Shown here: positions 4,367 to 61,235 of the stretch, piece after piece
Layout: each line of letters opens with the position of its first letter
How positions within the stretch are numbered: position 1 is the stretch's first letter
Origin: Dryococelus australis
Taxonomy: Eukaryota; Arthropoda; Insecta; Phasmatodea; Phasmatidae
DNA: 64,000 nt
Assembly (NCBI GenBank): GCA_029891345.1
Contig: CM057003.1
Span: 7,916,709-7,980,708 of the forward strand
Direction of reading: 5' to 3'
Notes under the pieces: generated by a model
Told to the model about the DNA's origin: nothing
Databases searched by the model: none
Seen by the model: the letters and a program-made list of their open reading frames with translations, nothing else
Translations under genes and position numbers: made by a program

Positions 4367-5296
4367 GATGGGAAGCGGTGCCCAAATCACTTGCATGTCT
4401 GAGCGCCATCTGCGTACACTGTGCACGGAGTACCCGGTGACCTGGACCGCGAAGGCGTCTCGCCCAATTGGCGGGGAGAATGGATTGGTGATGATTCGTG
4501 CGGCAGTCCATAGCGCCACTCAATATCTGGGTGCGGTAAAGGTTCTGGTTTGGTGCCCGGTATAAAAATAAAACAAAACTTTACCATGTTAACACCCAGA
4601 TAACAAACAACTACGCACCGACCATCTTCCACAATCACTCACGAACAACTTTCACTCAAAATTGGGAGGGTCGCTTTACTCGCCCAACAATTATGATAAT
4701 TTAAAACTTTTTACCGAACCCTCTTCACCGGAGGCAGGAGAGGAACTGTACGAATTTAGTAAATAATACATTGTTTGAACGGAAATATACAGCGAGGAAT
4801 ATTATGGGCACGATGACCAGTTGAGTCCGATCCATGCATTTCGGCCACTCTTTTTACCAGCGACACGGTACTAATGTTCTTCCGTGAATTTATTTCCTCG
4901 CATCATTTTTCTGCAAGAAGCATCTCGCATGGCACACAAATTTTTCATGTGGCGTTTCTTTAATTTTTCATTCTCGAAGAGGATAAATCGCTCCAAATTC
5001 TTGCATGTGACTGGCTTGCTCATTTATTGCTCGTCAACATTCGAGCATTTCAACTGACGTTGATCGATTTGAATTCTCCATTAGACCAACTATAGTGCAG
5101 AAATATTAGAAATCCTCGTTTAATATAGTCTCTATGCAGTATTGCATCTTCTTCAGTCTGATTGACCCGTTATTCCCCTTCTGTGCGCGTGGCCATTATT
5201 TTTCTCAATGACAAGAGAAATTTGTATATTGTTTACTAGCATCCCGTCATCGCTTCGCTCAGGTTTTATGGCGTTACTGAAATGCATACCTATATA

Positions 5297-6422: not shown

Positions 6423-7945
6423 GCCCTGCCCGACCCTGTTAAACTCTGAGGTCGTGGGACCACCGAGTATACCAACGCGACATGGCGAAAGCACGCTGAA
6501 TGAAAACTTATGGTTAGGGGCAGGTGTTTTTCGCGAAAAAAAAACCCCGTCCCTACATATGGTGCTTGAATTGCGTGGTGTTCCTGGTCAACACTACCTC
6601 GCCTCCAGCCCTAAGATTTTTGGTGACCCCGAATGGGCCTCCCTAGTTTTTGCATTAGGCGACGGATCGTTACCCATCCATGTACTTACTCCACCATACT
6701 ATGTTGAACCATGACCATCAGGTTACCATGGCGGTATGGCCATCGGCAGGCTGAATGGAGACTGGGAAAATCACCTAGTTTATACGGAGTTTACCTCTCC
6801 TCCTAGCGCAGTCAATGGCGGTCGAGCACAGGGAATTCTGTACATTCTTTGATTTTCCTAAGGAGCTCTTTTTGTTGCGAACTTTAGAGTAGTGATGTAA
6901 CATGCCGGATCAAACAGTAAGACCAAGAAGATGGAAATAAAAATTTCCATAAATGCCTGAAAAATGTTGCGGCTCCAATGTTGAATTTTTGCTTCACACG
7001 GTTCTCTTTCGTCAAAATAAACAAAAGTTATTCACGTGTCTACTCCATTTTTCTCGAGGGACAAACGACTCGATAGTTTACTGAATTCGAGTAACCCTTG
7101 TAGCCTGGTAATGACAGCGATAACGTAACAGTAATATTATAGGTACCGTACACTATATATAAGAAAACCTTTCAGATAGTATGGTAATCGCATTGTTTTG
7201 TTTTAACCTCTTCAGTGAATGAGCATTGCCGACAATATCAATATATACATACTGCAGCAAGTAAATTCCTGGATTTCGATTGGGCTCTAGTTATTGCAGT
7301 GCAAGGTATCTTATGCATGTATGCATGTGCCTGATGAGCATATATTTATTTATTTTTTAACTCTCTCGTTCACTTGCTTTCGTATGAGCTGAGATGCATG
7401 CGACATTCAGTATATGAGATTCTCCTCTGGGGTTAAGTGTACTTAATGGCGAAGCGTATGCGAGGGGTATGAAATGCGAATTAACCTTGAGAATGTAAAG
7501 TTCTATAGCATTGAACTAGCAAACAAGATAGCGGAGTTGCGTGAATTGTAAATACCCTCTGGGGGTTATCAAACACGCAGGATTCCCGATTAGAAGTTTA
7601 ATTGTGGCAAATGATAATGATACAGTAATGAGTAAGGAGAGGCGTGAATAATAATAACCGTCAATGCTAGAGGCGATTATTTAGCTTCAATATTCAAAAA
7701 GAAAGAACTTCCTGTCAAACTGCGTAATAATTATTGTGAACACATGGATACTTGTATAAAGATCAGTTGTTAATGGAATTGTGAAGATACAACAATTCGT
7801 CATTAAAATGGACATCAGCATATCTATTGCCGCCACAGTTGAAAATAGTCTATTATTTATAAATTGTACTGCATGTTTTGAAGAGAAAAAAAAACAATAA
7901 TTTTTCCAAAACCAGTCTGTATTAAATAGGAGGCATTTTTTGGCA
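6423..7945. other. Unclassified; mixed composition
   Basis: The first 420 bp are relatively GC-rich and include an 86-codon open frame (6,454-6,714, alternative start) with no recognisable domain. They may be part of an uncharacterised repeat. The remainder is AT-rich with no features found. Confidence 0.35.
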
Positions 7946-7954
7946 ATCCATGAG

Positions 7955-8105
7955 ACGGCGTGGTGATTCAGTGGTATGGTACTACCTTGCGTGGTATGGC
8001 GGTAGGTCTGAAATACCAACCACTTGTAAAATTTTAACTAGTCAGAGCCAGAAATCGAACCCTTCTCCTCCAAAGAAAGACAACCAGAGCTACTGACTAC
8101 CGCAG
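7955..8105 (-). repeat. tRNA-derived SINE-like repeat (second family)
   Basis: On the minus strand, an A-box-like stretch (tagtcagtagctctggttg) starts near 8,098 and a B-box-like gggttcgatttc lies near 8,055. This is the spacing of an RNA polymerase III internal promoter. No cloverleaf of a functional tRNA can be drawn. The body differs from the main SINE family. Confidence 0.5.
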
Positions 8106-10379
8106 AAGCGATTCGTAAAGGGAAATGCTCATCGATTCCAGTCGTGTCCCTTGGTTTACACCCATAATACACTTACACACATAAGAACACATATGTTCTC
8201 GCCGTGTACATTGTATTTTGGGGGGACACAGGTGTGCGTGGTGGTTGGAATGGGAAGATTGTGTGGTAGGCTGGTGTGGAGATGCTGTACACCGATTTCC
8301 GTTTCCTGCAAACATTGCTACACCCTACGCCAACAGAACTGGAAACACAGGATACACTGTTAACCTAATCATGAAATGCCAATTACGTTTATAGATAATG
8401 CTGTCTCTTGAAAACACGCACATTAAATTTTTATGGCTGTGAAAATTATTTCCCAATATGTATCTCAAACTAATAAATTGCTGCCGTAATATTATTGTCA
8501 CAGATTTTAAACGCTGTGCTATGCTCAAGTAATTTCAACCAATTTCGAATGGGCACGAACTCCCGCACAAATCACCCTTGTTCAAAGGTTCATTACACTC
8601 TTGTTTATGGCAGCAGTACTCGGTAAGTAAGTTGGGGAAATTGTCATATTGAATGCTTACATTAGGAGGGGTGGGAGGCTTGCCCCACCTGGCCCATCTT
8701 GAGCGCGCGCCTGTGACATTCATATGAACGTATTTCAAGTTGTTATGATGGGGGTGGTGTCCAAGAAACATCGTTATTCCTGTCCTTCACGAGAAACTTT
8801 ACTTCTCCTTTATTTCTGTTATTTTTACGGTCATGTAGGAAGTATCACGTCTTGAAATGTTCATTCGAAACATTCTCCACGCGTTTCCATTTTTTTTTTT
8901 TCCATCCCGACTACTGTGCGTCACCTTCACCTTTCCCTTTACGACCCCCTTCGTCCTTCGTCCTTTTCTCCCTGCCGATCGGTAAGGCGGGCATTCGTGG
9001 CAGGATATCCGGAACAAGCTATCACCTTGAAGGATAGAGAGAGAGAGAAAAAAAAATGTAATTACCGATTAGAGGCCGCGATCTGTAAACATGGCCTCGT
9101 CGTACGAGATTCGTCGTTGATGGCGTTCGAGACGATCCCTCCCACGGCTGACGATCGGGAAGATATTGGCCGGGGCGAACGTAAAACAAGCATCATCATT
9201 GGCTGTGGTCGTTGAGTTTCACGCTCAGGTGGCACCGTGGCGATACAAGATATCGTTTCAGACGAGGCACGTATTCAAGGGATGCGTGCAGGCAGTCCGG
9301 GCGACTCTTTCAAAGGTAAACTTACACTCACTTAAGTAAAACGCTGGGAAAAGTAACCATTAGAAATTACAGCTGTTAGTTATAACATTTCGTGAGAACA
9401 ACTGCCAAAATACACATGATTTGATAGCTTAAGGAGCCACCCTTATAGCACACCACAAGGCTGATTTTTACTTCCGTATAATTTCTGTTATTATAGCAAT
9501 TTAATATTTAAAACTTTTTTTGAATGTTATGCCCGTGTGCAGTGTTTCAGCGTGTGAATGCCTTAGCAGTTGCTATAATCCAGTAAAACAGGGTTCATAT
9601 TCACACAGGAAAAACATGTTGAGATTTTTGTAACGTATCTGGAAAATTCCATTATATATTTGTGCGTATACATAATTTTCGTAGTTTTATTATTTCTCCT
9701 CGGTTACAGTGACCCCAAACTCCCCAACCTGCCCCTCGGTTCTAACCCTATTACGCCCGTGTTGACCCTCCCCAAACAATTCTCCTGGATATGTGCCTGT
9801 TTCAGAACCGACCTTAGAGTTTATCACAAGGTAAACGGTTTTGCCTATGCTTGTGTCCTTAGACTTACATATTTACAGCAGGAAAGAGAAAATAGTGACG
9901 TCGACAGTTGTTAAATTTAGCAGAACCAAAACATTTATACAGAGCGAGTCCTTTACAAGAGGCCCCGTGAGACTGTATTTCCTCATTCCCTCGCTCCGTT
10001 ACACACATGTCCCACAGGGCCTCTTTTAATTCATGTGTTCCAGTTGAAAAAAAAACACAAGAAGTGTAATGACATTCCACAACACGTATGCGAGTTGTGT
10101 GTTAAGCATTTGACAGTTCGTTAGGTAAGAAAGCCATTTGATGCAGGGACTGAGAAATCAAAATATTTCCTCTGTGCAGCCTAGTAATGAGCTTTGAAGA
10201 GTTAGAGCTAACCAACTTCGGGTGCGTCCGGCTCTGCCGAATTTAGCCGAAGTATAGGTAGTCCCTATCCGCTATGGACTGCCGAGTATGTAGTTCATTC
10301 ACGGTTACTTCGAACAACACACTCAAGATCAAATGACACGGTAGATAAGAATACATGAATCACCAACCATACCACCATT
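8106..10379. other. No gene recognised; one GC-rich patch
   Basis: From about 9,060 to 9,315 the DNA is CpG-rich and ends in caaaggtaaac, which fits a splice-donor consensus. I cannot tie it to any exon or family. The remainder is AT-rich, with reading frames that look random. Confidence 0.35.
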
Positions 10380-13446: not shown

Positions 13447-14153
13447 ATGAAGTCTAGTTGAAATATTAAAAATATGACCCTTTAGCATTCGCAATTAAGT
13501 TAGCTGGAGAACAAAATACAGGAGCGCTATGGTCACTGGAAGTTTCAGGTGTTATATAAGCGCCCACGGGAAAATAAAATAGCAAATCTTTATGTCACAG
13601 ATGTGATACACAGCTCTTTCAATTTCTGTCCTACCCCCCTCCCCCCCGGGTTCCATTTTCTTGCTGACAGCGGCGTATTTCATGAAATGACGTCCGGTTG
13701 GCAGCACATGACTATCGCTCTTTTGTGTCGCTAATATACAGTCACCCCCTTTTACATCACACATCACACATCACTCGTCACGTTTGGCCGGGCGTGATGG
13801 ATTGGGTGAGGGAGAGGGGCGTTAATAAGTTACGTTTCAATGGCGTGCGTGTATGAGTGGATTCACTTTCTGTGTTGTCATTGATGGTCAGGCATGGAGG
13901 GGACTAGCAGTTGAGCCCAACGGATAACACAAACACGTTTATTATTCTCAGCCCCTTAATCGGTGTGCCAATTTACTTTAAATAGTAGCACACGAAAGTC
14001 CTCGGTTTAGGGACAGGAATCAATATTATAGACGCGGACTTTTCGCCGATTCATTTCACAACAAGCTAGCCTCCACAATAATTTGTGTACTCGAACCGAA
14101 GTAAGTTGTTCACTGGCAGTTGCTTCAATTTAATTCCAGACCTAGTAGTACGA
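13447..14153. other. No gene recognised
   Basis: Mixed composition with a C-rich tract near 13,632-13,650. The reading frames here overlap on both strands and show no family motif. The last four bases (acga, 14,150-14,153) are the left target duplication of the next element. Confidence 0.5.
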
Positions 14154-15523
14154 AAGTAGTAGGGGCGAACGGGTCCTACCCACTTTTGATTAAGCGGATT
14201 ACCCCTTTGATATCAAATTAATGTAAAGGGTTTTAAGGGGTTAAATTTTAATCTGATTTTCATCCGAAAAAAATTCTTAATCCAATTAAAAAATTATTAA
14301 TCCGATCTTAATCCGATCAATTTTTTTCCGGATTTTGTGTTTGGTGCAAGAATTACATAAGTGTCAAATTTACTATTTTCTTTTCTTTTGTGGGTAGCAG
14401 GAGCTCTGCATGATGTTGACGGTGTGGTGCCTTGGAGGTGACTGACCAGAGTGGTAGTTTGCAATGTGTTGTATAGGTGTTGAGTTGAGTACAAGAGTGT
14501 GCTAAGGGCTATGTTTTTCTAATTTGATGTGTTTGTAGTTATATTGGTGGTATATAGACGATTTTTACGAATATATTTAACACGCGAGAGAAATTCAGAG
14601 TGTTTAAACGATTTATAAGGGTGGTCTAAGTGTAAATTTGATATTTTTGGGGGGACATTGCCCGTAGACAGTGGTAGGAGATAGGTGACATAGAAAGATG
14701 CGATTTACAAATTAGTAATGAGAAATGATTGACAACTGTTTCAGAATGCAATTAAAAAATTAGAGAATTTCAGAGTGTTCTATGTATGAATAAATTACAC
14801 ACATCGAATCGCAAATTTCAAATCACTACATGAATAATAAGAGGAGTTACTCCAGTGTGTAATTAAACATAATGCGAGTCTCGTGTTTAGAAATAAAATT
14901 TACAGGAGAGAGAGGTATACACAGTGACATGAGTATGGAATTAATGATCTAAAACAAAACAAAATGTCTCTACTAATTAAATGAACAAGATATATATATC
15001 TACATATATATAATGCCTCTTGCACATACTTTGCACATCCGTCTGCCTGTGAGACTAGCGAGGAGGAATTTTAGAAACATAATCAATACGTAAAAAGAAA
15101 TTATGTGACTCTCCAAAATGAATTGATTAAGAAAGAAAAATGTTCCTATAAATTACTTTAAATAAATGACAGTCTTCCTAAACACATTAACAAGTTTACA
15201 TATACAAATTATACATACATTACATGATTCAACCTGGTGAATGATATCTTTTTGCAAAAAAAAAAACTCTGAAATGATCTAAAGCAGATACAATCGCATA
15301 CATGAAACAATATTAAAATAAGTCCAATCGATGTATGAATAAGTAGCACTTACATCGAGCTGTGAGTAGATACGTGTAGCATGTTCGATAGACAACTGTG
15401 TTTGAATTACGGAAAAAATTCCTAAATGAATAATTTTTTTTTATGTTTATGAAATTCACTACACTTTTTAACACAATCTGTATTTTTAAACTGCTAAGAA
15501 TTTTCATAGACTGAGCTCAGAAA
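14154..15523 (+). repeat. Left terminal inverted repeat (1.37 kb)
   Basis: It pairs with 19,453-20,789 along its whole length, with small indels and substitutions. Clear shared blocks are the tip, the aatccgat-rich sub-repeats at 14,250-14,330, the block around gtagcaggagctctg (14,394) and cctgtgagactagcgagg (15,047), and the inner end at agactgagctcag. It shows no coding capacity. Confidence 0.92.
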
Positions 15524-16749
15524 AGTAATTGAGATGATAATAAAAATAATAAATGCAATAGATCGGGATATCACACGAAAATGTATATTTTCTGATATAT
15601 TAAAAAAATATTTCACCCTATAGTTTACGAATGCTGTGAACGAGATCTGAACCCTGGAGCAAATAATTTCGCTTAATGAAAATCGTGGCTAGCACTAGAG
15701 ATGGAGGTAGGTGCGATGGTTACCGGTCCATAGTTGCAGTAACCCTCGATTGTAACTTCATCAGCCACCAACTGTCTACCCACTTGGTGAAGACAAGAGA
15801 GAGCTGTTGAGGTATTCATCTGTCTAGTACAACCTGCCTACTTGTAGCCACCCCCTACTACCTCCCACACCCACCCCTTGCCAGAGTGCTACCCTGGGCT
15901 GGTCTCGATTGTCAATTTTTTGACAATGTAGCAAGATGGCATCAACTGTGTTCATGCATTCAGATCGAATGCTGTCTGCTGATAGCAACCCCCTCCCACC
16001 ACCACAAGTCAGAACTGGCCAGAGTCCAGTGTGCCAGCCACCCCCTACAGCCTCTCGCGCTCAGGCCATGTCTGAGAAGCCCTGGGGGTCATTCGCCCAT
16101 CTGCTTGTGATTGTCGTTTTTCGCCACTGAGGCAAGATGGCAAGGACTCTCTAGATATGGCCACATCGCTCCAACACCAGAACACATTTTTCGGACAGCT
16201 CAAGCATTGCTCTGGCCAGGACAACACACCCGACCCCCTCCCACCGAACCCGTAAACCACTCCAGCCTAGAGCACATATATTTTCCCGAACAAGTCTGTC
16301 TGTCTGCCTAACAGACTCCCTCTCTCGTGCAGCGAAGTTTGGACTCTTTCGAATGCATTAACATGATGTATTCCCAGGGAAATAAAAATTTTACAAGTCC
16401 CACCGGTCATAATTTATATCCATGAAGCTGAATATTACCCAAAATCTTAATCCCCAGATAAAATGCCAAGAAATTTTATATATAAATCCAATAAATGAAT
16501 TATAATTAAATAAACTTATTAAAGTAGTTCCAGGAAACTAAGTATATTTTCATACAAGAGATATTTTCAGTCACTATTTTTATTTTTTTTATTTTGAAAT
16601 ATCGCCATTTTCAAACATATACCATCCCATTTACTTAAGTTTCTACTATTACGATATAAGACACAATACATGCATACACTATAAAACATTCAATCTGTTA
16701 TATATATATATTCGTATAGCATAGAAAAATATGTATTTTATGTGTAGAC
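15524..16749. other. Element interior: GC-rich non-coding block
   Basis: From 15,690 to 16,330 the DNA is CA/CCC-rich. It contains two related segments about 215 bp apart that share gattgtc, a T-run and gcaagatggca (near 15,908 and 16,112), probably an old duplication. It could be a control region for the cargo genes, but no TATA box stands out. The rest to 16,749 is AT-rich. Confidence 0.4.
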
Positions 16750-17121
16750 TTGTCTGCGACACTAACATTTACTTATAACCAAAGTTTCAATTCACAAGTT
16801 TCCCAATCGAGATTTTTAGATACACTATCTACCATAACATTTGAATATACTCGAACTTATTTAGAAATCGATTTCCCTATAATCAAATTTGGACATAATA
16901 TTACTGAAATAGCACAAATGAAGGTTGAAATGACTTCTATCGGAGCTGGAATATATCAATTTCCACTATATTTCAACACATTTATGCAAAATTTAAAGGA
17001 AAATGCCTGCCATTTTGTAATTGGACACCCATCTTTTAGTATAATACTTTCCGTCTATCAAATAATTATTTACATTATAAAGAGATATCCGAGAAAAATG
17101 ACTTTATTCCATACTACTTAG
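16750..17121 (+). pseudogene. Orphan ORF inside the long-TIR element
   Basis: This is an open frame of 123 codons with no ATG at its start (the first codon is TTG), so it may be an exon or the remains of a longer gene. It has alternating hydrophobic and polar residues, a segment MKVEMTSIGAGIYQFPLYF near the middle, and a hydrophobic stretch near the C-terminus (residues 94-111). I recognise no domain. Its place between the TIR and the zinc-finger gene makes a structural or accessory gene of the element conceivable, but that is a guess. Confidence 0.35.
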
Positions 17122-17639
17122 GGAATCGACATGGCGAATTATCAGACAAATGTTAGTGGGGAAAACGAAATTCGTATTACATATGCATGTTTAAAATAGA
17201 AGAGCATTAAGACAATCACAGCTCAAAATAATTAACTAAACAGGCTAGCCTCCTAACACAATCATTTAGAAAACAGAGTCTTTAAAAATTATCTACAAAA
17301 TACTTTCAAACCCATCACTCCCTTCTACTTTACTGAAATTAAATGATTATTTATTCATTTTATTCGAATACAAAGTAAAGATGTATAACATGCATTGATG
17401 TAATCACATGGTGAATTAGTATGCACACCCATGCAATTAACACAGAAATATTAGAACGGAAGACATGAAACCTGATACTGTTTAAACCAGTACATTCATA
17501 CAGAAACAAGTTAGTTGTCATTCTGACATCTATTTGGAAGTAAACTTTCTCCTTACACCAACGATTATTCATTTAATCTGCATTGATGAAAATGGAGACA
17601 TCACTGAATAAACTACACTGCAAATACTATGCAAAAATT

Positions 17640-18182
17640 TACACTTTCGCATTCAATGTTCATAGCCATGAGAGGAGTGAATGTTTGAAGATATAATCTT
17701 GTACGATTCTGAACTGCAAAAATTGTTTTCACCACTTCACACAAATGGATAACTTGAGTCGTCATGTCAAGATCTATAAAAAAATTATCTTCCTCCTGAG
17801 AAAATAAAAGTACCGTCTACACTACATAATATCACAGAAGGAGCGGGAAATAAGGTAATTACAATAAATGACATAGAATTGGATTGTATGAAAAATACAA
17901 TAACACATGAACATAACAATTTTCGACATAGACTACTGCAACCACCTGTGAAGACCAGTGTCGATGACGATATACCTACTCTTTCTAAGCATTCCTTCAA
18001 CTAATGCTGTGGAAAAGGCAGACAGCATCAACAACTTTCTTTATATATTTCCTGAAGACTTGGATGAACTTGTTAATAAATTTAGATATTTATTGGAGTT
18101 TGAGAAACACTATGAATATTACAGAATAAAATATATGGTTTTAACAATAATAACACTTAAGGAACGAGGTTACATCGAATGA
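17640..18182 (+). pseudogene. Frameshifted C2H2 zinc-finger gene
   Basis: A finger is readable at 17,715-17,777. It has CKNC, then 12 residues including F and L (FTQMDNLSRH), with the last zinc-binding His replaced by Tyr (TAT for CAT). After a frame change near 17,785, a second segment runs in frame +2 to a stop at 18,002-18,004. A third segment returns to the original frame and ends at TGA 18,180. The last part (FPEDLDELVNKFRYLLEFE, then a leucine-rich helix ending RGYIE) resembles, from memory, the C-terminal helical domain of small finger proteins in arthropod TE or virus-like loci. The two frame changes cancel, which suggests one original gene of about 170 codons. The upstream limit is uncertain. 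Confidence 0.5.
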
Positions 18183-19056
18183 TGTAATATCTGCAAACAC
18201 CCGAGAAGTATGTGAATACATTTTAGTTAACCCTATTACTTAATAAAAAAAAAGTAATTATTTCAAGTAAGCATTGTGTGAAAGGAATATATTTTAATTT
18301 GAAATATTATGTCTTCTCCATACCAATTAAGTCGTTTGACTTTGCTTGGAATTTTCATTAGGTTTGTGGAATAAACCATATTATTTGAGTACTACACAGA
18401 CATATTAGAAAATTAAAGAATGGTTTGTGTTATAAACAGTCTTATTTGAGGAATAAAGTATGTTTCGAGGAATTATTTTGAGGAATTGGGAACTGACAAA
18501 CACCCTATAACATATAACCAGTATTAAAATTTATGGTATCTATGTTTGTGAAGCATACTTACTTATGCTAAGATTTTTGTAACCTCTTGTACTTGGTTGT
18601 GTTAAAAGGTTATACATAAATTTTTGGGTCATTCTGTATTTGTATATATTTTGAAACAATTGTCTAATATGTCCTATGTTTTGTAACATCATGTAGTTTC
18701 AAAATTTTGTAAAATCAATGTTTTATAATGAATTTTTTTCATTTATTTAACCCATTCCTCATTAAAAGTGAACTTGTTTTTGTAAGAAAATATTTTCTCG
18801 ATAGAGAGAGTGTGTGAGAGGAAAGGAATTAAAATGTAAGAACAGAGAGAGATTCTTGCATTTTCTATTAACATTATGTTGCAATGAGTTTAAAAGACTA
18901 TGACTTCTACCAAAACAAACAATGTTCTTACTGACACGAAATACTGTTTTACTGAAAAATAGCCAGAGGAAAAGTTGCAGTTTGAGTAAAGGTGAGATTT
19001 TGAGTTTAGTGAATAGTTTATTTCCCATTAATTGTTATTGTTTTGTATTGCACCAG
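18183..19056. other. Element interior between zinc finger and Rep fragment
   Basis: AT-rich DNA that may hold the missing N-terminal part of rep. A segment at about 18,738 reads FIYLTHSSLK, weakly like Rep motif 1 (FLTYS), but stops follow quickly. The end (ttgttttgtattgcaccag, 19,038-19,056) fits an intron acceptor: a T-rich tract followed by AG. Confidence 0.3.
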
Positions 19057-19490
19057 AAAAGCATAGTTCGGGTGAATTACATATTCATGAATTTCTAGCA
19101 TTGGAGGATCGGTTCGATTTGGCGTACGTTGGTGACATCTTGGTGTCTCACATTGGTAGAAGACATGACATTCAGACATGTAGGAATCGTCGCCAGGTGG
19201 TGAAGTATATTTCTAAAGAGGACGTCGAGCCACTGTACAATGTGATTACTAGTTCGTTGCATTTCAATGTTCAGTGACATCAGTGGTTGAAGCACACGTG
19301 ATGTTTTAGTTATAATGACCGTTTCGTTAGTCAGCATCGTCAATATTACAAATACTTAGCTTGTCATTTTAATGAATTTGAAGCGAGTAAGAATCAGGGT
19401 TTTATGTTGCTTATATTTATACATATAAGGGCTGGTATGAGGAGTGTGCATGTTTCTGAGCTCGGTCTACGAAAATTCCTAGCAGTTTAA
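19057..19490 (+). pseudogene. HUH-endonuclease Rep fragment (CRESS/geminivirus type)
   Basis: Rep proteins of circular ssDNA viruses and related replicons nick and rejoin DNA with a Tyr in an HUH fold. Here the frame from 19,057 contains SSGELHIHEFLALEDRFD, which has the HxH metal-binding motif 2 at 19,080-19,088. It continues to HDIQTCRNRRQ and VVKYISKED, with the catalytic Tyr at 19,206 and Lys at 19,215 (motif 3, YxxK). TGA stops at 19,275 and 19,299 interrupt the frame, which then stays open to 19,490 with a segment FVSQHRQYYKYL typical of structured protein. Motif 1 and any helicase domain are absent. The upstream AG and T-rich tract suggest the fragment was a downstream exon. It has decayed. 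The family call rests on motif order and spacing, not on a search. Confidence 0.7.
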
Positions 19491-20789
19491 AATTACAGTT
19501 TGTTTTAAGAGCAGTGAATTTCATAAACATAAAAAAAATTTTCTTTCATTTACAAATTTTACCATAATTTAAATACAATTGCCTATTGGAGGTGATACAA
19601 ATATCTACTCACAGCTTGATGTAAGCGTTACTCATTCATACATCGAACTGACTTATTCTAATATAATTTCAGGTACTAGATTGTGTCCGGTTTAAATGGT
19701 ATTCACAGTTTTTTTTGCCATAAGATACCATTCACCAGGCTGAATCATGTAAGGTACATATAATTTGTATGTGCAAACTTGTTATTGTGTTTAGGACGTC
19801 TGTCGTTTTACCAAAGTAATTTATAGAGGCATTTTTGCTCCATTAATTTTTAGGAGAGTCACATAATTTATTTTTACATATGGATTATGTTTTTAAAATT
19901 CCTCGTCGCCAGTCTCACAGGCTGACGGACATGTGAGGTATGTGAGAGAGGTATCATATATATATATATAATCGTTGGTTTAATTTTTAGAGACATTTTG
20001 GTGTGGATCATTATTTCCTCACTCATATAATTGTGTTATACTTTTCTCTCATGTAAATTATATTTCTAATCTCGCAACTCACGTCATGTTTGATTACATA
20101 CTGGAGTAAAGCCTCTTATTATTCATGTAGTTGTTTGAAATTTTGTATTTCGATGCGTATCATTTATTCATACCTAGAACACTCTGAAATTCCCTAACAT
20201 TTAACTGCATTTGGAAACAGTCATCAATCGTTTGTCATTACTAACACATAAATCGCATCTTTTAAAGTCGCCTATCTCCCACCACCATCTACGAGCAATA
20301 TCTCCCAAAGATATAAAATTTACACTTAGACCACTCTTAGAAATCGTTTAAATACTCTGAATTTCTCTCGTGTGTTAAACATATTCGTAAAAATCGTCTA
20401 TCTACCACCAATGTCCCTACAAACTCATCAAAATTATAAAAAACTTAACTTAACACCTATACAACACATTGCAACCCATCACTCTGCTCAGTCGACTCCA
20501 GAACACCATGCCTTCAACATAATACAGAGCTCCTGCTACCTACAAAGGGAAAGAAAGAAAACAATAAATTTGACACTTATACTATTCTCGCACCAAACAC
20601 AAAATCCAGAAAAAAACGATCGGATTAAGATTCTATTAAGAAATTCTTAATCGGACTAAGAATTTTTTAATATAATTAAAATCGGATTAAAATTTAACCC
20701 TTTTTGACTAACCCTCTCAATTAATTTGAAATCAAAGGGTTAATCCGAATAATTATAAGTGGGGTAGGACCAACCCGCCCCTACTACTT
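19453..20789 (-). repeat. Right terminal inverted repeat (1.34 kb)
   Basis: This is the reverse complement of the left arm. Its inner edge starts at tttctgagctcggtct and its outer tip ends cgcccctactactt, followed by the acga duplication (20,790-20,793). The end of the Rep frame runs about 40 bp into this arm. Confidence 0.92.
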
Positions 20790-20897
20790 ACGAGATACGG
20801 GCCTTTTTCCCCCTTGCAAACCAGTAATTGTTCGATGGTCGTCCGGAGGTTTCCTGACAAACTGCGGTCCAGTATAATAAAAGTATAGACTCGTACA

Positions 20898-22821: not shown

Positions 22822-22893
22822 GATGACAGCTGATCCGCCGAAGTCGCTCCGATGATTCGGTGGGCAGTTTCCGGGGGAAGTATGATTTGCAAA

Positions 22894-22939
<46 letters not shown>

Positions 22940-23119
22940 TCTGTGGCTTAATTTGACTCATAATGGAAAACCTCACCAGGCCCGGGCACCGGAAGGACTG
23001 ACAGATAGAGAGCTCTTTCTTGATCCGGTTGTTGATGGTGCATGGCCATTCATATTTTGTGGAGCGATTTGTGTGGTTAATTCCGACAACGAATGAGACT
23101 CTGTCCTGCTAACTAGTAT
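22822..23119 (+). rRNA. 18S rRNA gene fragment (pseudogene)
   Basis: The stretch includes the near-universal small-subunit signature aacttaaaggaattgacgga, then gggcaccaccaggagtggag, then gcttaatttgactca, agctctttcttgat and ggttaattccgacaacga. This is the conserved core in the last third of 18S rRNA. It is truncated at both ends. It also lacks the segment normally lying between two TTCCGGG copies just upstream of the signature, consistent with a deletion between those direct repeats. Substitutions at usually invariant sites indicate a dead copy. Confidence 0.92.
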
Positions 23120-23459
23120 TGGTAACTTAAATAAACGTCATAACGTGAATACAATTATGTGTAAAATTAAGGACAATGTGGACAAATATAACATAACATA
23201 GAAATGACCAGGCACAACAGACCACAAATCCCATCGGTACATTGCTTAGGGTCTGGTACGTCAGAGCACGCACATGTAAGTATCATGGCGTGCTGTGGGC
23301 TTGTGCGAAGGGCGTAACGCACTAGCGCGGTGTACTTACGCACCATTGCAGTGGAAGCTATTGCACAGTGCACATCGTTGAACGACGCCGAGTTGCAATC
23401 TTATGTCTTATAAAAGCGACATCCAGCCCCGTAGACAACATCGAGACGACTACCCGAAG

Positions 23460-25125: not shown

Positions 25126-27605
25126 TAAAACCTAGCGTATCGAATAAAATAGTAAAATTAATACAAAGAATTAAATTGACGTGTTTTATAAGTAATGGAA
25201 TTCCATTACTCCAATATTTATAATCCGACAAGTAGGTTTTAGCGGAATGTTGGAAAGCCAGTTCGAGAGTTACCTCTCGTACAAGAGCTGCCTGTAAATA
25301 TTGATGTTAACAGCTAGATTTTGTTTGGGAGGGTTTACCAACTATCGTGATTTTTTTTTTGTAACAGGCTAACTGGGAGCTGCTTGATTTGTCCCGTGGA
25401 ATAAACTCACACGTAACAACAGCAAACAAAACTATTGTTTACAGTGGATTATTGCCCGGAAACTTCATCTACTAGTTGCCTTAGTTGTTTCGGGTATTGT
25501 ATTCCACAACTTGAGTCCACGATGGATAAGTCGCTTCTGACGTAGTCATGTAACGTAATTTTATTGAATTTGGAGTATATGTATACGAGATATTTTCATT
25601 TTAAACTAAAGTTTTTAAAAGGGGGAGCGTTGCCTATTTTCCTTCTAAATAAAAATCTTTGGAGGGGACCGCCACTCACTAAACGTTTTGTCTCCTCCTG
25701 GAACACGCGATTTGCTGCGCAAATAAATTTATGACTAAAAGTGAACCACTGCGAAATCGGTGTGCCACAAGAAAAATTTGTTTTGATCTGTATATCAATG
25801 GCAATGACAAGCTTTCTTTGTCTTTACAATGATTCAGTAGTATTCAATCTGATAAAATAAGATACTGTATTTTTTAATTTATACCATCACGTTGATGATC
25901 TTACGAACTGGTTATTTCGTAAAGCGGCAATTAATCAGTTTCAAATTATAAAATAAATAATATTTTCATATCATTTAACATTTTTATAGCAAAATATTTT
26001 TACTGTAAAGGGAGCTTTAGTGTTTTCTTTCCTATCCAGATAGGTTTAACTGTAATTAAAAATATGTAAAAAAGTTTTAATTTTTAAAATTTTTCTTTGC
26101 AATAAAAATGTGATTTTGTTATAGTAAACGAAATAGCCTCAAAGAGAGGTTTTTGTTTGCTACGCAGAAAGCTCCCAAGTTCTTTTTAAAGTGAACCTTG
26201 AATTAATTATATATAATTCAAATTTCATTTACAAACAATAGAGCAGTTTCAGGGAAACGTAAATAAATATTAATGTTAAATTCAATCACGCAGGTGGTCC
26301 GAAATCAACGATCAGCAATGTATTTAGATAGGTCTGATGTATCATGCCAGTTGCTACTGAGCTGGTGTAAGACGTGAAAATTATTTCCTCCCACACAGAG
26401 ATAGAGAGAAAAGAAATTGAGTTCGGAATGCAGAGGTGGGGAAACGCGAAGCACTCGTCTTTGTCTTTCACGGCCCTTCAGACTGGGCCCCACGCCGTTT
26501 TTAACCGTCGCCGTAAGAGCACTTCATGAATATTTTTAACATATCTCCCCCTTCGCGCCTCCTCCGTGCAATTCGTACACACACACTCACGCGAAGCCAG
26601 AGCGATGCCCTCTAGTATTTTCACAAGTAATTCTCTCTGGCCTTCCGACGGCACACTTATTTTTTTTTTACCCCTCTCTGGGCGTCTGCCTTGTTTATTT
26701 CATAACACGCCATTTCTGTGCCTTCTCTTGGTCCATCGCTTTGCCACCCCCGGAAAAAAGAAATAGCAGTTTGGTGTGTCCACTTCTTCCACCCTGCAGT
26801 TGGGGTGTTAGCCGTGTTGGGCACTGGATAAGGTCGACGATGGATCAGGGCAGAAGACGTGCGAAGGGAAAAGGGCGATGCGGGAGATAAAAGGACGAGA
26901 TAATGAACAAAGAATGCGGGCTTAACGAACCGCCTCAGTTGGACGGCGCCAACCGCTGGCAGTGCTGCAGCCATCGTCACGTAACAACGAGGGTAAAGAG
27001 ATGAAGATCCGCACGAATTACATACAAGTCCAGGGCGGAAGCGGGGCTTCAAGCCGTCGCGTTTCAGGTTTCCACCCTCTTGAATTCCTCTCGAATGGAC
27101 CAGAACCTTTCACGGGGGAAGATAACCGCACTTGCAGCAGTTCTTCAGTCTCATGTAATCCCACTCTCAGGATGACATGTTGCTAAGCTGAGCGTTCGCT
27201 GTAATATCTCGGTAGTAAAAACACATGAGTAGCCGAGTACTTTACGCAGTTCGCTAACATACCACAGAAAGTAACAAAAGTTAAAATACATGTGTGTATG
27301 AGTTGTTCGAGTGCTCTTCAACATGTTATCCCATGTACGTAAATTCGTTTCATTCATAGCTGGTTAAAAAAAGTCATTTGACATGAATTTGATTTGTGTT
27401 TATATAAATGCTTATTTTCACATATTTGCCTACATGCATACGAAAAGACACACGTTTCACTTGTTGTCTGTATACGTATATAGTATGTGTAGATTTATGT
27501 GGGAAGAACTGGGTTTTGAATAATAAACTTCCCAAAAAATTGTCCTTATGAACTAATGTCCAGGTTCGACAGTTCCCGAGTTGCGGGCACCAGTCACTTC
27601 ATCCG
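25126..27605. other. No gene recognised
   Basis: Contains a perfect 20-bp palindrome at 25,191-25,210. 26,480-27,190 is GC-richer with no family signature. The rest is AT-rich. Confidence 0.5.
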
Positions 27606-27610
27606 CTAGG

Positions 27611-27835
27611 ATGCCCCGGTGTAGTGGTTAGACTACTCGCCTCCTACCTCGACGATCCGGCCTCGATTCCCAGCCGGGTCGCTCCTAGATTTCCACAAGT
27701 TGGTATCGTGCCGGACAATGCCGCTGGTCGGCGGGTTTTCTCGGGAATGTTGCGTTTCCCCCCGACCCTTCATTCCGGCGCTGCTTCATACACACCTCGT
27801 TTCACCCTCATTGGCTCTCAAGACATCGACTTTAA
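27611..27835 (+). repeat. SINE, near full length
   Basis: The head ccccggtgtagtggttagac, the B box cctcgattcccagccgg, the body tatcgtgccggacaatgccg and ggcgggttttctcggga, and the tail gctctcaagacatcgacttt are in family order. The final tail segment is diverged. Confidence 0.9.
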
Positions 27836-27849
27836 GGGTCCTGTGTACC

Positions 27850-30395
27850 TGCGCGTTCAAGGTCAAGAAGCGAGAGAGCGATACGGGTGACGCTAACACG
27901 CACGTCTAGCGCCTCATCGCTCCTACGCGCATGGAGTGCAGTATTTCCGTCCTAACGCTTTACTGTGTAAACTAGAGCTGTAACAGTGGAGATTTATTAC
28001 ACGCGATGAAAATACACAGATAAAACTACCTGCGTATAATCGTACTTTTCTCTTGCCTCTTAAAGAAACTTCACAGGCAAGCTTTAAAAATGCGATATTT
28101 GACAACTTGAACGATTGTTTTTCTCCATTAATATACTTAATACTATAAAAGTAAAAATATACCGAAGTAGATAGTAGTTTATTTTTATCCTTTCTGCCAA
28201 AACTTCGTATTTCCAGAATATTTACTTACCCAGACACGCGTTTAGACCCATACAAGGATTTCACAGAAAACGTTTCAGTACACGACCCTTACGGGCTAAC
28301 TCACACACTCATTCCGTCATACATGCGGAATTTATTTAAATAAAGCCGTTGTTTCTTCAAATGTACAGTACACAATCACCATCTATTCAGTAAATATTGA
28401 ATTACACAAGAGGTGATTCATTGACCCGGTGAAGGGTCATGGAGGGAGGTTATGCGTGTAATAGAAAAATAACACGTGGGTGTTGGTGAGAAACGAAGTT
28501 TCTGTTTTTATTATTTTCCTCTCGTGTGTGACGTGTTATTTAGCCCCCCCCCCCCCCCCCCTCTTTCTCCTTCTCCTAGGCGACCCTTCGCAATCTCGAA
28601 CCTAAGGGTCGCTGCTCCACAAAATCCCCGCAAGTGCTTTCGGTCCGGCAAACTTTTGATAGAATTCCGCGCGACTTTGCGCCCGGGACTTTTCATCTCT
28701 TCTTCCATTTTATTTCTGCTGTTCCCTCTCTCGCTCTCTTGTCTCTCTCTCGTCTCCCGCGCACCGGGGAAAATTCCTCTGCAGAGCGTCTTCTCCGTGG
28801 CGCACGACGCCTCCTGTCGGTTGGATTTCACTTGCTGAAGACCACCCCGTCGTGTTTATGACATTTCTGCAGTGTTTCCCCTCGGGTGGTTAGCGCCGAG
28901 AACTAGCAGCGCCTACGCGTATAAGAATTTTTTGCCCTCGTTACTCTGGTTGATTTTCCTCGCGCACCTCTGCTTTTATCTCCGAATCAGCTTCAAGGCT
29001 CCCGGAAAAAAAAAAACAAGTTTTCTCAGTGTCGTAAAAGCAAACGATATGTTATTTTCTTTTTACGGCTATGAGGATGCAGAGAATTTCCTGACAGCAC
29101 TCTCCCAAAATTTCGCTTCTAAAACTATCTACACTAATTAAGAGCGCATTTTCTGGACACTTGAATAATTCAAGGAAATTTAATTTTTTCATCAAAGTAA
29201 AATTCAAACAGTTACTTCGTTTGTCTTTTTTAGCTGAAAAATGAAAATGCTGTTGAATATTTAGACTTTAATTGTAGGCATTAAAAACGCAATTTATTAA
29301 TTTATCCTTGTAATCCATATTCCATAAAAATTACATTTTTTATATTAGCCTTGATTACTCTCTTGTCAATCGGTGCTTTAGTTTCAGGCTTTTAAAAATG
29401 TAAATATTTTCATTAAAATGGTGTTCTGGTATTTACTCGTTTTTTGCAGTCTGCATTATTTAAAGGATTATTGGTATAGATATGTTCACAGAGAAATTAA
29501 ATTGATATATTTAGTTGAATACTTCTTATATAAGATAAATTAATTTTTGTTTGCATTATTCGACCAAGTATTCAAAAACATTTCAATGACAACCATTTAT
29601 GTTTGTGTTATAGATGCCCTGGAACGGATGCGTGGATTTATAGAAGAAAATGGAATCTGTATGATGAGTTAACTTTTTAATAGTATTCATGTATGCAACA
29701 ATAATGGACATATACAATTCAATCTTTAAATTAAGTATCCGAGATATCAGCGTAAATTTTAATTTAAAACAGTTTTACTGCTTCGCTTAGAACATATTAT
29801 AGAGGAGAGAAATTATTATCAGGGCAAAAATTTGTCTCTCTTTTTAAGAAATTTCACGTCACGTGGTAGTGTTCCAGGATATACTTATTCGCTCGACAGA
29901 AACTATATATGCTTAACCGGGAACTTTTAAATTAATTTCGAATAATGTAATTGGATTGTTTGGATTTATAACTTTTCTACGTGTTAATTCCTATCTTCGG
30001 TTCTGAAATTCAAGTGACTCGTTGCCAGATTGTAATGCCTTTACTTGTGTGCATCATAAAAAAGGGTTGATTTTACGAAACCCTGAATTCATACCAGGTG
30101 CGATTTTTTTTCCCCTCACAGTTAGTTAAGCTAGGCAACTGGATGTCGCTAGGGGGTCGTTGCCTCGACTTTTCGCCACCGCAGGAGAATTTTGGCAGTG
30201 CTCACGAGATTTTTCGGAGGACTTAATACCCATCCGTGGTTCCCCTGGGGCACAGTCGCAGGATTCCTCCGATTGTTTAAAATTTCCCAACGGCCAGCCT
30301 CGAATTTCTCCCCCAAATCTACGCCAATTTGCAAGTGGGTCGCCCTTAAGGCGATGACCAAGCATTTCTGAGCCGGTTTTACTTGGCAAGTAGTG
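27850..30395. other. No gene recognised; pyrimidine-rich patch
   Basis: A poly-C tract (about 28,544-28,560) and a CT-rich block up to 28,800 give spurious frames on both strands. 29,150-30,060 is AT-rich. 30,110-30,360 is GC-richer and unassigned. Confidence 0.5.
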
Positions 30396-31262: not shown

Positions 31263-32780
31263 CATATTTCACAATAATTATTAATTTCATTATCTAAAGG
31301 ATGTTTGTATTAAGGCCACATAACTATAACTATTTTGTAAACAAATGATTATAGTTTTCAAAATTTATCACCGAGAAGTAGAAAACCTCGGAAAATGGGA
31401 GCCCATGCTTCTATGCTCCTAATCAACTTTACCAACTTAATAACATGTCATATGGTCTGTATCATATACACAACATAGTTATTAAGTCTCAATGATATTT
31501 TACAATCGGTACTCTGGCGCTGGCATCCTGAATCTATTTTGAAATAGCTATTGATGTTTTTGCCAAAAAATTTTTATTTGCCCGAGAGAAAATAATATTA
31601 ATAATTATTAGTTCCTCTCGATCGAATATAATTTTGTTCGGCAAATACATCAATACATATTATTTTTAAACATTCTGGATGCAAGTACCCGAGTACCGAC
31701 TGTTAAATATACTTGATATTTAATATATAAGTTGTGTATATTGTTTCAAGAGTGCCAGAGGGGCGTATCTCAGTTAATGAAGGATGGAGGTCTTAATAAA
31801 AATAAAATTACTAAATTCAGTAATTATATTAATTCTCAATGCTACAGACGGTCGAACATATGTTATTTACCAGTCTGAGCATTCTATTAACTCTTATCGT
31901 TCTTATTGAGCTTAATATTTAATAACCACCTCCATTTCAATTAAAGTCTTCATCACAGTCTTTACTCTTACTAGTGTCCCTTAAACTGATCTAATTATTT
32001 CCACACGTTTAGTTAAAACTGTCTCTCTCCATCGTCCTCAGATGTCTTTTCACTCACGCGTTCAGTCCACAGTCTCGCAGTTCAGTCCTCTTCATTGCAC
32101 ATCAGATCGCCGACGCACTCTCGCAGATCGCTGTAGTCGTCCCTCGCCGCTCCGGAATCACCCAACTGTCGCATAGGGTCGCACGAGACGCCAATCTCTC
32201 GGCTCTTAATCACTGCCCCCCTCGGAGGCCCGCACGTGGTATTTATACTTGAGGTAGGCGCCGTCTAGAACGTTCTCGGCAATCCAAGATGTTCTGGGAA
32301 AAGTAATTGTGATGACGGCGACGTTCCTGCGTGGTAAATGGAGAGATATGAGCTTCTCAGGGTCAGCGGGGCGCAAGCTGCGAAGAGTTTTACGGCGTGT
32401 GCGGCGGCGTCCTTTATGACAGGCCGCTCGCTTTCTGTAACAGATACGTGGCCACTGGCCTGTCACTCGCCTGTTCATTCAAAACAATCCTCTGACTTGC
32501 TGCCGCCGCTATCATATAACTGTTGTCCTTCACTTCCACTCGCTCGTGCAGGATGCGAAGCAGAGCGCGCGTAACAATCTGATACAAATCAAATGACATG
32601 TGATTTAGTTGGTATAGTTAGTTAGGTACCTAGAAACTTGGGCTCCCATGTTCAGAAATATTCGTATATTTGGTGCTATATTTTGAAAAATATGGTAATT
32701 TCACTACAGATATTTACATTCATGTGGTCTTTATATAAATATTTTTCAAATAACGAAATAAAACGCTATCGTGAAATATG
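31263..32780. repeat. Long palindrome (foldback), split by a solo LTR
   Basis: The left arm runs from 31,263 to about 31,600. The right arm runs from about 31,605 to 31,741 and continues at 32,577-32,780 after the LTR. Paired landmarks are catatttcac, ttttcaaaat, gggagccca, tgtatcat, atacacaac, cggtact, gatg-ttttgcc and the centre. Without the LTR it is an imperfect inverted repeat of about 680 bp with almost no loop. It is non-coding and could be a foldback MITE. Confidence 0.85.
31742..32576 (-). mobile_element. Solo LTR (835 bp), minus strand
   Basis: On the minus strand it starts TGTTACGCGCG and ends TTGAAACA, with the TG...CA ends expected of an LTR. Flanks are atat (left) and atct (right). 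The palindrome partner arm shows that the empty site read gtatatgatac, so the 4-bp duplication was atat. A TATA box (aagtataaat on the minus strand, 32,241-32,250) and a GC-rich leader fit an LTR promoter. No internal retrotransposon genes are present, so it is a recombination remnant, probably Gypsy-like. Confidence 0.82.
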
Positions 32781-60199: not shown

Positions 60200-61235
60200 A
60201 CTTCGGATCGCATTTTGTTTGTATGCATGCGTGAATATTATCACAGACGTAACTAACAAACGTCGCATGTTACCGTACGCAGATTTGCAAACAGTTTTGG
60301 CAAATAATAGTTCGAATCACAAACTCGTTAACACGGATGTAGCTGGCGTCCAAACCGGTCGCGCAAATATTCTGATGGCGATAAATCAGTTAAATGGCCA
60401 AACGAGGAAACGGTTTAAGTGGGAATGGTGCGCGAAAGCTGTATATTTACCAAGTTTTTGTCACTAGTTGTTTCCCAGAGGATTTTTCGAAATTTTCGGC
60501 ACGTCAAGACATTAATAATTATTGTTAAAACCTTCTTACATTTTTGGATATTGACTGCCTTTGCTATTCTCAGAGCACTGATGGAATAAAATTAAGAATA
60601 CCTCATATGTTATCTTCTACCAGAGCTCCGAGAATAACATAGAAAGTGAATATCTAACGGTGTAAAAACGTTTTCACAATTATTATTTGTGTCTTGTCAT
60701 GCCGAAAATTTCCATAAACCCTCTGAAAAACAACTTGCGATGTAAATTGGGTTAAATATACTACTTTCGTTCACCATTCCCCTTAAACTAATGCCCTGGA
60801 AAACAAGAAATGTGGGAGAGTTCTCGTGCCAGTCAGGACAGTTTTCAAGTTATACTACAGGATATGAATTTTTTTTCCGTACCAATGTGTATTCAATGAC
60901 TCTCGAATAAGTTAGAGCAGAGAACTACGAAGTCATGACGCTAGTAGTAAGATAGATGTGCCGCTGTAAAATGTGGCAGAGATTGTAACTCACATCTGCG
61001 ACCCTTCAGTCTGTAGCAAGGTGGCGATCCGTTACATAATTGTGATGTTTCGTTACAGTCCAGTCAGTACATCTCTTACACGTTCTCTCTGCCGTCAGCG
61101 AAATCGAGACCTTAACGGCGGAACACACTAAGATCGACAGGATTTGCGTGTGCTAGGCATATTAAACTCTTCTGGTAGAGAAAATTATACTCTAGTGAAG
61201 TTACCACATGCGAATGTGTAGTGGACAACGGAAGC
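60200..61235. other. No gene recognised
   Basis: The 82-codon frame at 60,219-60,467 has no motif. Composition is otherwise mixed and AT-rich. Confidence 0.45.

What the first reader, a model, noticed from the sequence alone, without database searches (positions are those of the whole stretch)
14154..20789. Long-TIR element carrying a relict CRESS-type Rep: candidate undescribed mobile element
Inverted repeats of about 1.35 kb, matching tips and a 4-bp target duplication (acga) show that it moved as a unit. Its cargo includes an HUH Rep fragment of the kind used by circular ssDNA viruses, a C2H2 finger gene and an orphan ORF. Known cut-and-paste superfamilies with 4-bp duplications do not use such a Rep, and Helitrons and other HUH transposons lack long TIRs. 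Either a rep was captured by a TIR transposon, or a linear ssDNA-like replicon with long terminal repeats colonised the genome.
Basis: partly seen in the sequence, partly recalled or inferred. Interest (0 to 1): 0.87.

Follow-up and report, generated by a model that had tools for sequence, protein, structure and literature searches.

The report
Decayed Polinton holding borrowed Rep fragment
A worn-out copy of a known kind of virus-like jumping DNA (a Polinton) in a stick-insect genome holds, at the edge of one end repeat, a broken piece of a replication gene of the type used by small single-stranded DNA viruses; the shell is a known kind, while the mixture of the two virus types is unusual and worth following.

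Summary
The long inverted repeats, matching tips and Rep fragment are real. The repeats belong to a large family. Larger copies encode a double-jelly-roll capsid domain (Pfam E 4e-35, 5e-35), a phospholipase A2 domain (2e-8) and a weak family-B polymerase match (0.0046, under cut-off). The tip is better read as AGTAGTAGG with a 6-bp target duplication: 5 of 6 paired copies match at 5 or 6 of 6 bases (window TACGAA/TACGAG). So the shell is most likely a Polinton/Maverick, not a new superfamily with 4-bp duplications. No core gene was found in the window copy. Its right arm is shortened inside and joined to a truncated Rep fragment. Rep is a separate family (138 matches; best Gemini_AL1 E 2e-12). 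It is absent from the 5 other paired copies examined, and 19 of 19 other Rep loci lack this repeat within 1.5 kb. Best reading: secondary acquisition by a decayed Polinton. Against it: of 12 Rep loci seen with 5 kb around, one lies downstream of capsid and PLA2 genes on the same strand and one has a piece of this repeat 3.6 kb upstream. The genome-wide co-occurrence test did not complete.

The parts
14149..14154 (.). left copy of the 6-bp target duplication, TACGAA
14155..15523 (+). left terminal inverted repeat of a Polinton family, tip AGTAGTAGGGG
   Evidence: 79.6% to the right arm; 40 matches scored of 3645 candidates in the genome
15524..16172 (+). inner block, parts of which lie inside the inverted repeat on both sides in larger copies; in the window only on the left
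   Evidence: blastn hits to parts of it on both sides in E15, E14 and E10 (in E10 both sides only to about 15712)
16369..17155 (+). interior DNA shared with another copy (L095, 76.5%); holds the 133-aa 'orphan' frame 16720-17118, 47% identical as protein there
   Evidence: frame length within chance
17697..18179 (+). relict C2H2 zinc-finger region in three overlapping open pieces; no match in the other copies and Rep loci examined
   Evidence: zf-C2H2 E=0.0057 below cut-off; motif in 0 of 400 simulations; no hit elsewhere
18972..19449 (+). truncated relict of a CRESS-type (geminivirus-like) Rep; open piece 19032-19274 with HIH and YISK motifs; the homology to other Rep loci stops at the inner edge of the right repeat
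19453..20788 (-). right terminal inverted repeat, shortened on its inner side compared with larger copies
20789..20794 (.). right copy of the 6-bp target duplication, TACGAG

Best explanation
The feature is an old, non-autonomous copy of a Polinton/Maverick family of Dryococelus australis. Shown: long inverted repeats, a family tip AGTAGTAGG, a 6-bp target duplication, capsid and PLA2 genes in larger copies of the family, none of these detected in the window copy, a right arm shorter on its inner side than in three larger copies, and a Rep homology that stops at that edge. Inferred: the ancestor was integrated by a retrovirus-type integrase and copied by a protein-primed polymerase; this copy lost its core and had a stretch of other DNA, including a truncated gene of a separate multi-copy CRESS-type Rep family, joined to the inner edge of its right repeat, by recombination or by template switching during replication. 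Whether the joining came before or after integration cannot be told from one copy. Rep is most likely not what moved the element.
For: TIR family with larger copies carrying DJR (4.3e-35, 5.4e-35), PLA2 (1.9e-8) and weak DNA_pol_B_2 (0.0046); pieces of these genes find nothing in the window. 6-bp duplications in 5 of 6 paired copies, chance for one pair 0.0065. Rep absent from 5 of 5 other paired copies. TIR absent within 1.5 kb of 19 of 19 other Rep loci (matches over 60 bases). Rep family with 138 matches, those other than the window's own at 30-75% aa identity. With a query that runs on into the repeat, Rep homology ends at 19447-19449 in 7 of 19 loci and earlier in 12; in the 7, identity falls from 23-33 of 40 bases before to 7-13 of 40 after. 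Between Rep loci homology goes >=60 bp further in 6 of 19. Window arms 1.37 kb against about 1.55-2.0 kb in E10, E14 and E15.
Against: One Rep locus of 12 (L144) lies downstream of DJR and PLA2 genes on the same strand. Another (L145) has a piece of this TIR about 3.6 kb upstream. No integrase was found in the 10 of 64 listed pieces scanned, and the polymerase match is below Pfam's cut-off. Copy E10 shows no duplication (1 of 6 bases). In several Rep loci homology to each other also ends within about 40 bases of the same point, so the edge could partly be a natural boundary of Rep, such as an exon end. Only pairs among the 40 scored TIR matches were examined, so a Rep-bearing sister copy could have been missed.
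Confidence: 0.75

Rival explanations
1. A Polinton sub-lineage of stick insects carries a CRESS-type Rep as a regular gene, and the window copy is a decayed member of it.
For: L144: Rep, DJR (7e-39) and PLA2 on one strand within 4.3 kb. L145: TIR piece 3.6 kb upstream of Rep. The window itself.
Against: 0 of 5 other paired copies hold Rep. 11 of 12 Rep loci show no DJR, PLA2 or polymerase match within about 5 kb, and 11 of 12 no TIR match.
Confidence: 0.17
2. A cut-and-paste TIR transposon of a new kind with 4-bp duplications captured a rep gene.
For: Exact ACGA on both sides.
Against: Other copies show 6-bp duplications and Polinton genes; of 38 non-self matches 10 start at base 2 of the query and 2 at base 1.
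Confidence: 0.04
3. A linear ssDNA-like replicon with long terminal repeats, replicated by its Rep, colonised the genome.
For: Rep next to a terminal repeat; some folding near the ends: z -1.46 and -0.26 for the outer 41 nt, -1.45 and -1.91 for the outer 100 nt, -0.99 and -2.58 for the next 100 nt.
Against: TIR family without Rep in 5 of 5 other pairs; Polinton genes in the larger copies; no strong terminal hairpin shared by both ends.
Confidence: 0.03

Closest known systems
Polintons / Mavericks (polintoviruses)
   Same: Long terminal inverted repeats, 6-bp duplications and AG tip (both recalled as Polinton traits), double-jelly-roll capsid gene and a weak family-B polymerase match in larger copies of the family.
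   Different: In the window copy no core gene was found; it is 6.6 kb and holds a Rep fragment and a C2H2 relic not found in the other copies examined.
Geminivirus-like Rep transposon of Tuber melanosporum (PMC3198968; passages and section 8 read)
   Same: Geminivirus-like Rep inside an element with terminal inverted repeats; many Rep copies in the genome (42 there).
   Different: There: 37-bp TIRs, two transposase frames, no obvious duplication. Here: 1.35-kb Polinton-family TIRs, 6-bp duplication, no transposase found in the pieces scanned.
Bidnaviridae (PMC4061559; passages read, one of them from the abstract)
   Same: In that paper's scenario an ssDNA virus entered a Polinton and took its terminal repeats: the same two kinds of partner as here.
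   Different: There the ssDNA partner was a parvovirus and the product a virus with PolB; here a broken CRESS-type Rep lies in a decayed Polinton shell.
Endogenous CRESS Rep sequences in eukaryotes (PMC3198968)
   Same: The Rep family (138 matches) gives Gemini_AL1 matches up to 2e-12.
   Different: No helicase domain was seen in the pieces scanned; homology to the window starts at one base, 18972, in 10 of 19 loci, just after an acceptor-like site.

Membership tests
Polinton/Maverick | long terminal inverted repeats | tested here: met
Polinton/Maverick | 6-bp target duplication next to an AG... tip (trait recalled) | tested here: met
   5 of 6 paired copies at >=5/6 bases; E10 fails
Polinton/Maverick | double-jelly-roll major capsid gene | tested here: met
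   in family copies E15 and E14, E 4.3e-35 and 5.4e-35; not found in the window copy
[quoted passage not shown]
   DNA_pol_B_2 E=0.0046, 16.3 bits, below cut-off 25.8, in E10
Polinton/Maverick | retrovirus-type integrase | tested here: inconclusive
   not among the 10 pieces scanned, of 64 listed
Polinton/Maverick | adenovirus-like protease and packaging ATPase | tested here: inconclusive
   L129:849-1082 looks like the protease to me from recall, but Pfam and PDB searches gave no such match; no ATPase among the pieces scanned
CRESS/geminivirus-type Rep | HUH nuclease domain with motifs II and III | tested here: met
   window HIHEF and YISKE; Gemini_AL1 in 6 of 7 relatives at E<=0.1, 3 of 7 at or above cut-off, best 2e-12; best of 4 weak phage matches is a Microviridae initiator aligned at both motifs, E=1 in the collection
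CRESS/geminivirus-type Rep | motif I | tested here: met
   FLTFPNC in relatives L135 and L138; in the window only a damaged counterpart. Which motif this is rests on recall
CRESS/geminivirus-type Rep | superfamily 3 helicase domain | tested here: inconclusive
   none in the pieces scanned; further exons not examined
CRESS/geminivirus-type Rep | origin stem-loop with nonanucleotide | not tested
   -
Helitron | Rep joined to a helicase, no long TIRs | tested here: not met
   long TIRs present; no helicase in the pieces scanned

The most novel reading that the evidence does not exclude
Stick insects host a Polinton lineage that has taken up a CRESS-type rolling-circle Rep as a working gene, so that a dsDNA virus-like element with protein-primed replication gained an ssDNA-virus initiator: a second case of the kind of merger proposed for the origin of Bidnaviridae. 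The window copy and L144 would be decayed witnesses.
Probability: 0.15. Interest if true: 0.85.

Novelty: new member of a known kind. Interest (0 to 1): 0.45.

Why it matters
It documents a Polinton family with many copies in the Lord Howe Island stick insect, a large, diverged family of geminivirus-like Rep genes in the same genome, and one place where the two are fused. If Rep genes prove to sit regularly in Polintons, it would make testable how often ssDNA-virus replication genes and Polinton shells merge, the event proposed for the origin of Bidnaviridae. If not, it is a plain example of how decayed Polintons gather other DNA and how a single copy can look like a new kind of element.

Tried and rejected
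Rejected: a new superfamily with 4-bp duplications (6-bp duplications in relatives); a linear ssDNA replicon (the repeats occur in pairs without Rep); the orphan ORF as a gene (length within chance; 47% protein against 76.5% DNA identity in L095); a shared terminal hairpin (in one subterminal stretch, 20590-20689, only 1 of 200 shuffles folded as well). Led nowhere: protein search with the Rep piece and with a zinc-finger-region piece (no candidates), viral contigs, prokaryote genomes, plasmids, PHROGs and NCBIfam (no Rep match), PDB by sequence, a single-sequence fold of the Rep piece (pLDDT 49; not used). The tip pattern in viral contigs gave 83 stretches; the whole window element against these loci gave only two matches, of 20 and 18 bases. 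Literature: 10 searches listed no paper that I recognised as Rep inside a Polinton; for most searches only the best rows were shown, and the library lacks most subscription journals. Not checked: a small inverted pair inside L104 was left out of the duplication count. A flaw found on re-reading: the queries ended at 19452, so their end points at 19447-19449 proved nothing by themselves; one search repeated the comparison with a query running to 20400 and gave the same ends.
Full report
What was checked first. The inverted repeats are real: 14154-15523 against 19453-20789, 79.6% identity over 1387 columns, 82.2% without gaps, K2P 0.206. No other place in the window matches the element at E<=1e-3. 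The 14-base tip is exact at both ends; the other six matches in the window all have three mismatches. ACGA stands outside both tips; random pairs of sites in the window share an exact 4-10 bp string in 0.75% of draws.

The contents. The Rep piece 19032-19274 gives Gemini_AL1 with E=4.8e-4, 20.5 bits, under the cut-off of 24. It is the only Pfam match under 1e-3 among the 33 pieces of the window element that I entered, a few of them overlapping. Its motif pair alone arises in 5 of 400 simulated elements. In the frame beginning at 18900 it is preceded and followed by stop codons, so it is a relict. The C2H2 relict gives zf-C2H2 E=0.0057, under cut-off, but its motif arises in 0 of 400 simulated elements. 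The 133-aa orphan frame is reached or exceeded in 24 of 400 simulations. No transposase was found in these pieces.

The host. An unrelated frame of the window (27552-27884) finds three proteins, all of Dryococelus australis, on contigs of 127354163, 159496588 and 262277254 bases. The window's own assembly has contigs of exactly these lengths (C11, C8, C4). So the host is that stick insect.

The family of the repeats. A search of the assembly with the outer 347 bases of the left repeat gave 40 scored matches from 3645 candidates. Two of these are the window's own arms. Of the other 38, 10 begin at query base 2, 2 at base 1, 4 at base 3 or 4, and 22 at base 27 or later. Five further pairs of opposite arms were seen in the list: E15 (C1), E14 (C11), E10 (C11), E3 (C14), E2 (C4), named by rough length in kb. 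A small pair inside L104 was not examined.

Ends. Read with the tip AGTAGTAGG, the 6-bp flanks are TACGAA/TACGAG in the window, GATTCG/GATTCG in E15, AACGTT/AACGCT in E14, CACATA/CACACA in E3, GGCTAA/GGCTAC in E2, and GGCAAT/ATTGAC in E10. Five of six match at 5 or 6 bases. The chance for one pair is 0.0065; the tips were placed by eye, which favours matches somewhat.

Genes of the larger copies. Single open pieces of 75 aa or more were listed for the five stretches of E15, E14 and E10 (64 pieces), and 10 of them were scanned. DJR-like_dom: E=4.3e-35 (L126) and 5.4e-35 (L128). Phospholipase A2-like domain: 1.9e-8 (L127), with a 69% identical counterpart in E14. DNA_pol_B_2: 0.0046, under cut-off (L130). 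No integrase appeared in these ten. PMC6431247 (passages read) gives PolB, a DDE integrase and, in many, jelly-roll capsid proteins as Polinton genes. I file the shell as a Polinton on the repeats, the duplications and the capsid gene; polymerase and integrase remain unproven here.

How the window copy differs. Seven gene pieces of the larger copies find nothing in the window at E<=0.01. In E15, E14 and E10 the inverted repeat runs further in, to about 2.0, 1.7 and 1.55 kb, and covers homologues of parts of DNA that in the window lies only inside the left arm (15524-16172; in E10 only to about 15712). On the right side of the window the repeat stops at 19453 and Rep begins. Interior DNA 16369-17155 is shared with L095 (76.5%), so the left part of the interior belongs to the family.

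The Rep family. The Rep piece gives 138 matches at E<=0.001 of 150 scored from 312 candidates; this includes the window's own, and at least one locus appears in two pieces. Seven open Rep pieces from relatives were scanned: 6 match Gemini_AL1 at E<=0.1, 3 reach the cut-off, best 2e-12 with 47.6 bits; L141 gave nothing. FLTFPNC, HIHAFL and YITKED are seen among the relatives, not all in each. Independent of this, the best of four weak phage matches of the window piece is a Microviridae replication initiator aligned at both motifs, though only at E=1 for the collection.

Rep and this repeat. Nineteen other Rep loci with 1.5 kb on each side: none holds the repeat (matches over 60 bases). Twelve of these with about 5 kb on each side: one, L145, holds a piece of it about 3.6 kb upstream. 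Five other paired copies of the repeat: none holds Rep (hits of the last Rep piece in four TIR loci fall in its end, which is mostly repeat sequence). With a query running to 20400, homology between the window and Rep loci ends at 19447-19449 in seven loci (L108, L109, L113, L114, L115, L118, L119) and earlier in the other 12; in the seven, identity falls from 23-33 of 40 bases to 7-13 of 40. Between Rep loci it goes on for 60 bases or more in six of 19 (L113, L114, L118, L121, L122, L124), while in five others it ends within about 40 bases of the same point. So the window's Rep is cut at or near the repeat edge, though a natural boundary of Rep may lie close by.

A result against the simple reading. 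In L144 Rep lies at 4747-5118, the DJR gene at 7407-8563 and PLA2 at 8851-8997, all on the minus strand. That is one of twelve loci. The genome-wide test that would settle whether this is more than chance was sent eleven times in three forms and not answered.

Mechanism. Shown: a Polinton-family shell with a target duplication, no core gene detected, right arm shorter than in three larger copies, Rep fragment joined at that edge. Inferred: integration by an integrase, copying by a protein-primed polymerase, loss of the core, and joining of other DNA by recombination or template switching, before or after integration. If the arms were equal at insertion, K2P 0.206 means about 10% change per arm, so the copy is old.

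Comparison. PMC3198968 (passages and section 8 read) describes a geminivirus-like Rep with 37-bp TIRs and transposase frames in a truffle. PMC4061559 (passages, one from the abstract) proposes that bidnaviruses arose when a parvovirus entered a Polinton. The window shows the same kinds of partner, in decayed form. PMC9587614 (passages) was read for composite transposons; PMC4028283 was searched for six terms, none found in its text.

Verdict. A Polinton of a known kind, decayed, with a borrowed Rep fragment; interest 0.45. The bolder reading, a Polinton lineage with a working CRESS-type Rep, is kept at 0.15.

Noticed in passing
window 22874-23260: Diverged fragment of eukaryotic 18S rRNA (RF01960, about 115 bits; model positions 1117-1242 and 1189-1489 in two scans), 2 kb from the element.
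   Followed up: no
L107, L110, L113, L114, L115, L118, L120, L121, L123: A separate repeat of about 770 bp, matches 84-96% alike, lies within 1.5 kb of Rep in at least 9 of 19 Rep loci, in both orientations; in L121 it ends about two bases before the Rep block. It may be an insertion into an intron of Rep or part of a Rep-bearing element.
   Followed up: partly
L139:4112-7438: Inverted arms of about 540 bp (79%) enclose a Rep locus; possibly a short TIR element that carries Rep.
   Followed up: no
window 18966-18972: Rep homology in 10 of 19 loci starts at 18972, just after an acceptor-like TTGCAG, which suggests an intron upstream.
   Followed up: no
window 14350-20649: Mirror-like GC skew: +0.46 / -0.44 in the outer arms, negative at 15700-17949 and positive at 17950-19749.
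   Followed up: no
window 60413-60788 and 31464-31741: Two palindromic stretches of about 380 and 280 bp, each 75% alike to its own reverse complement.
   Followed up: no
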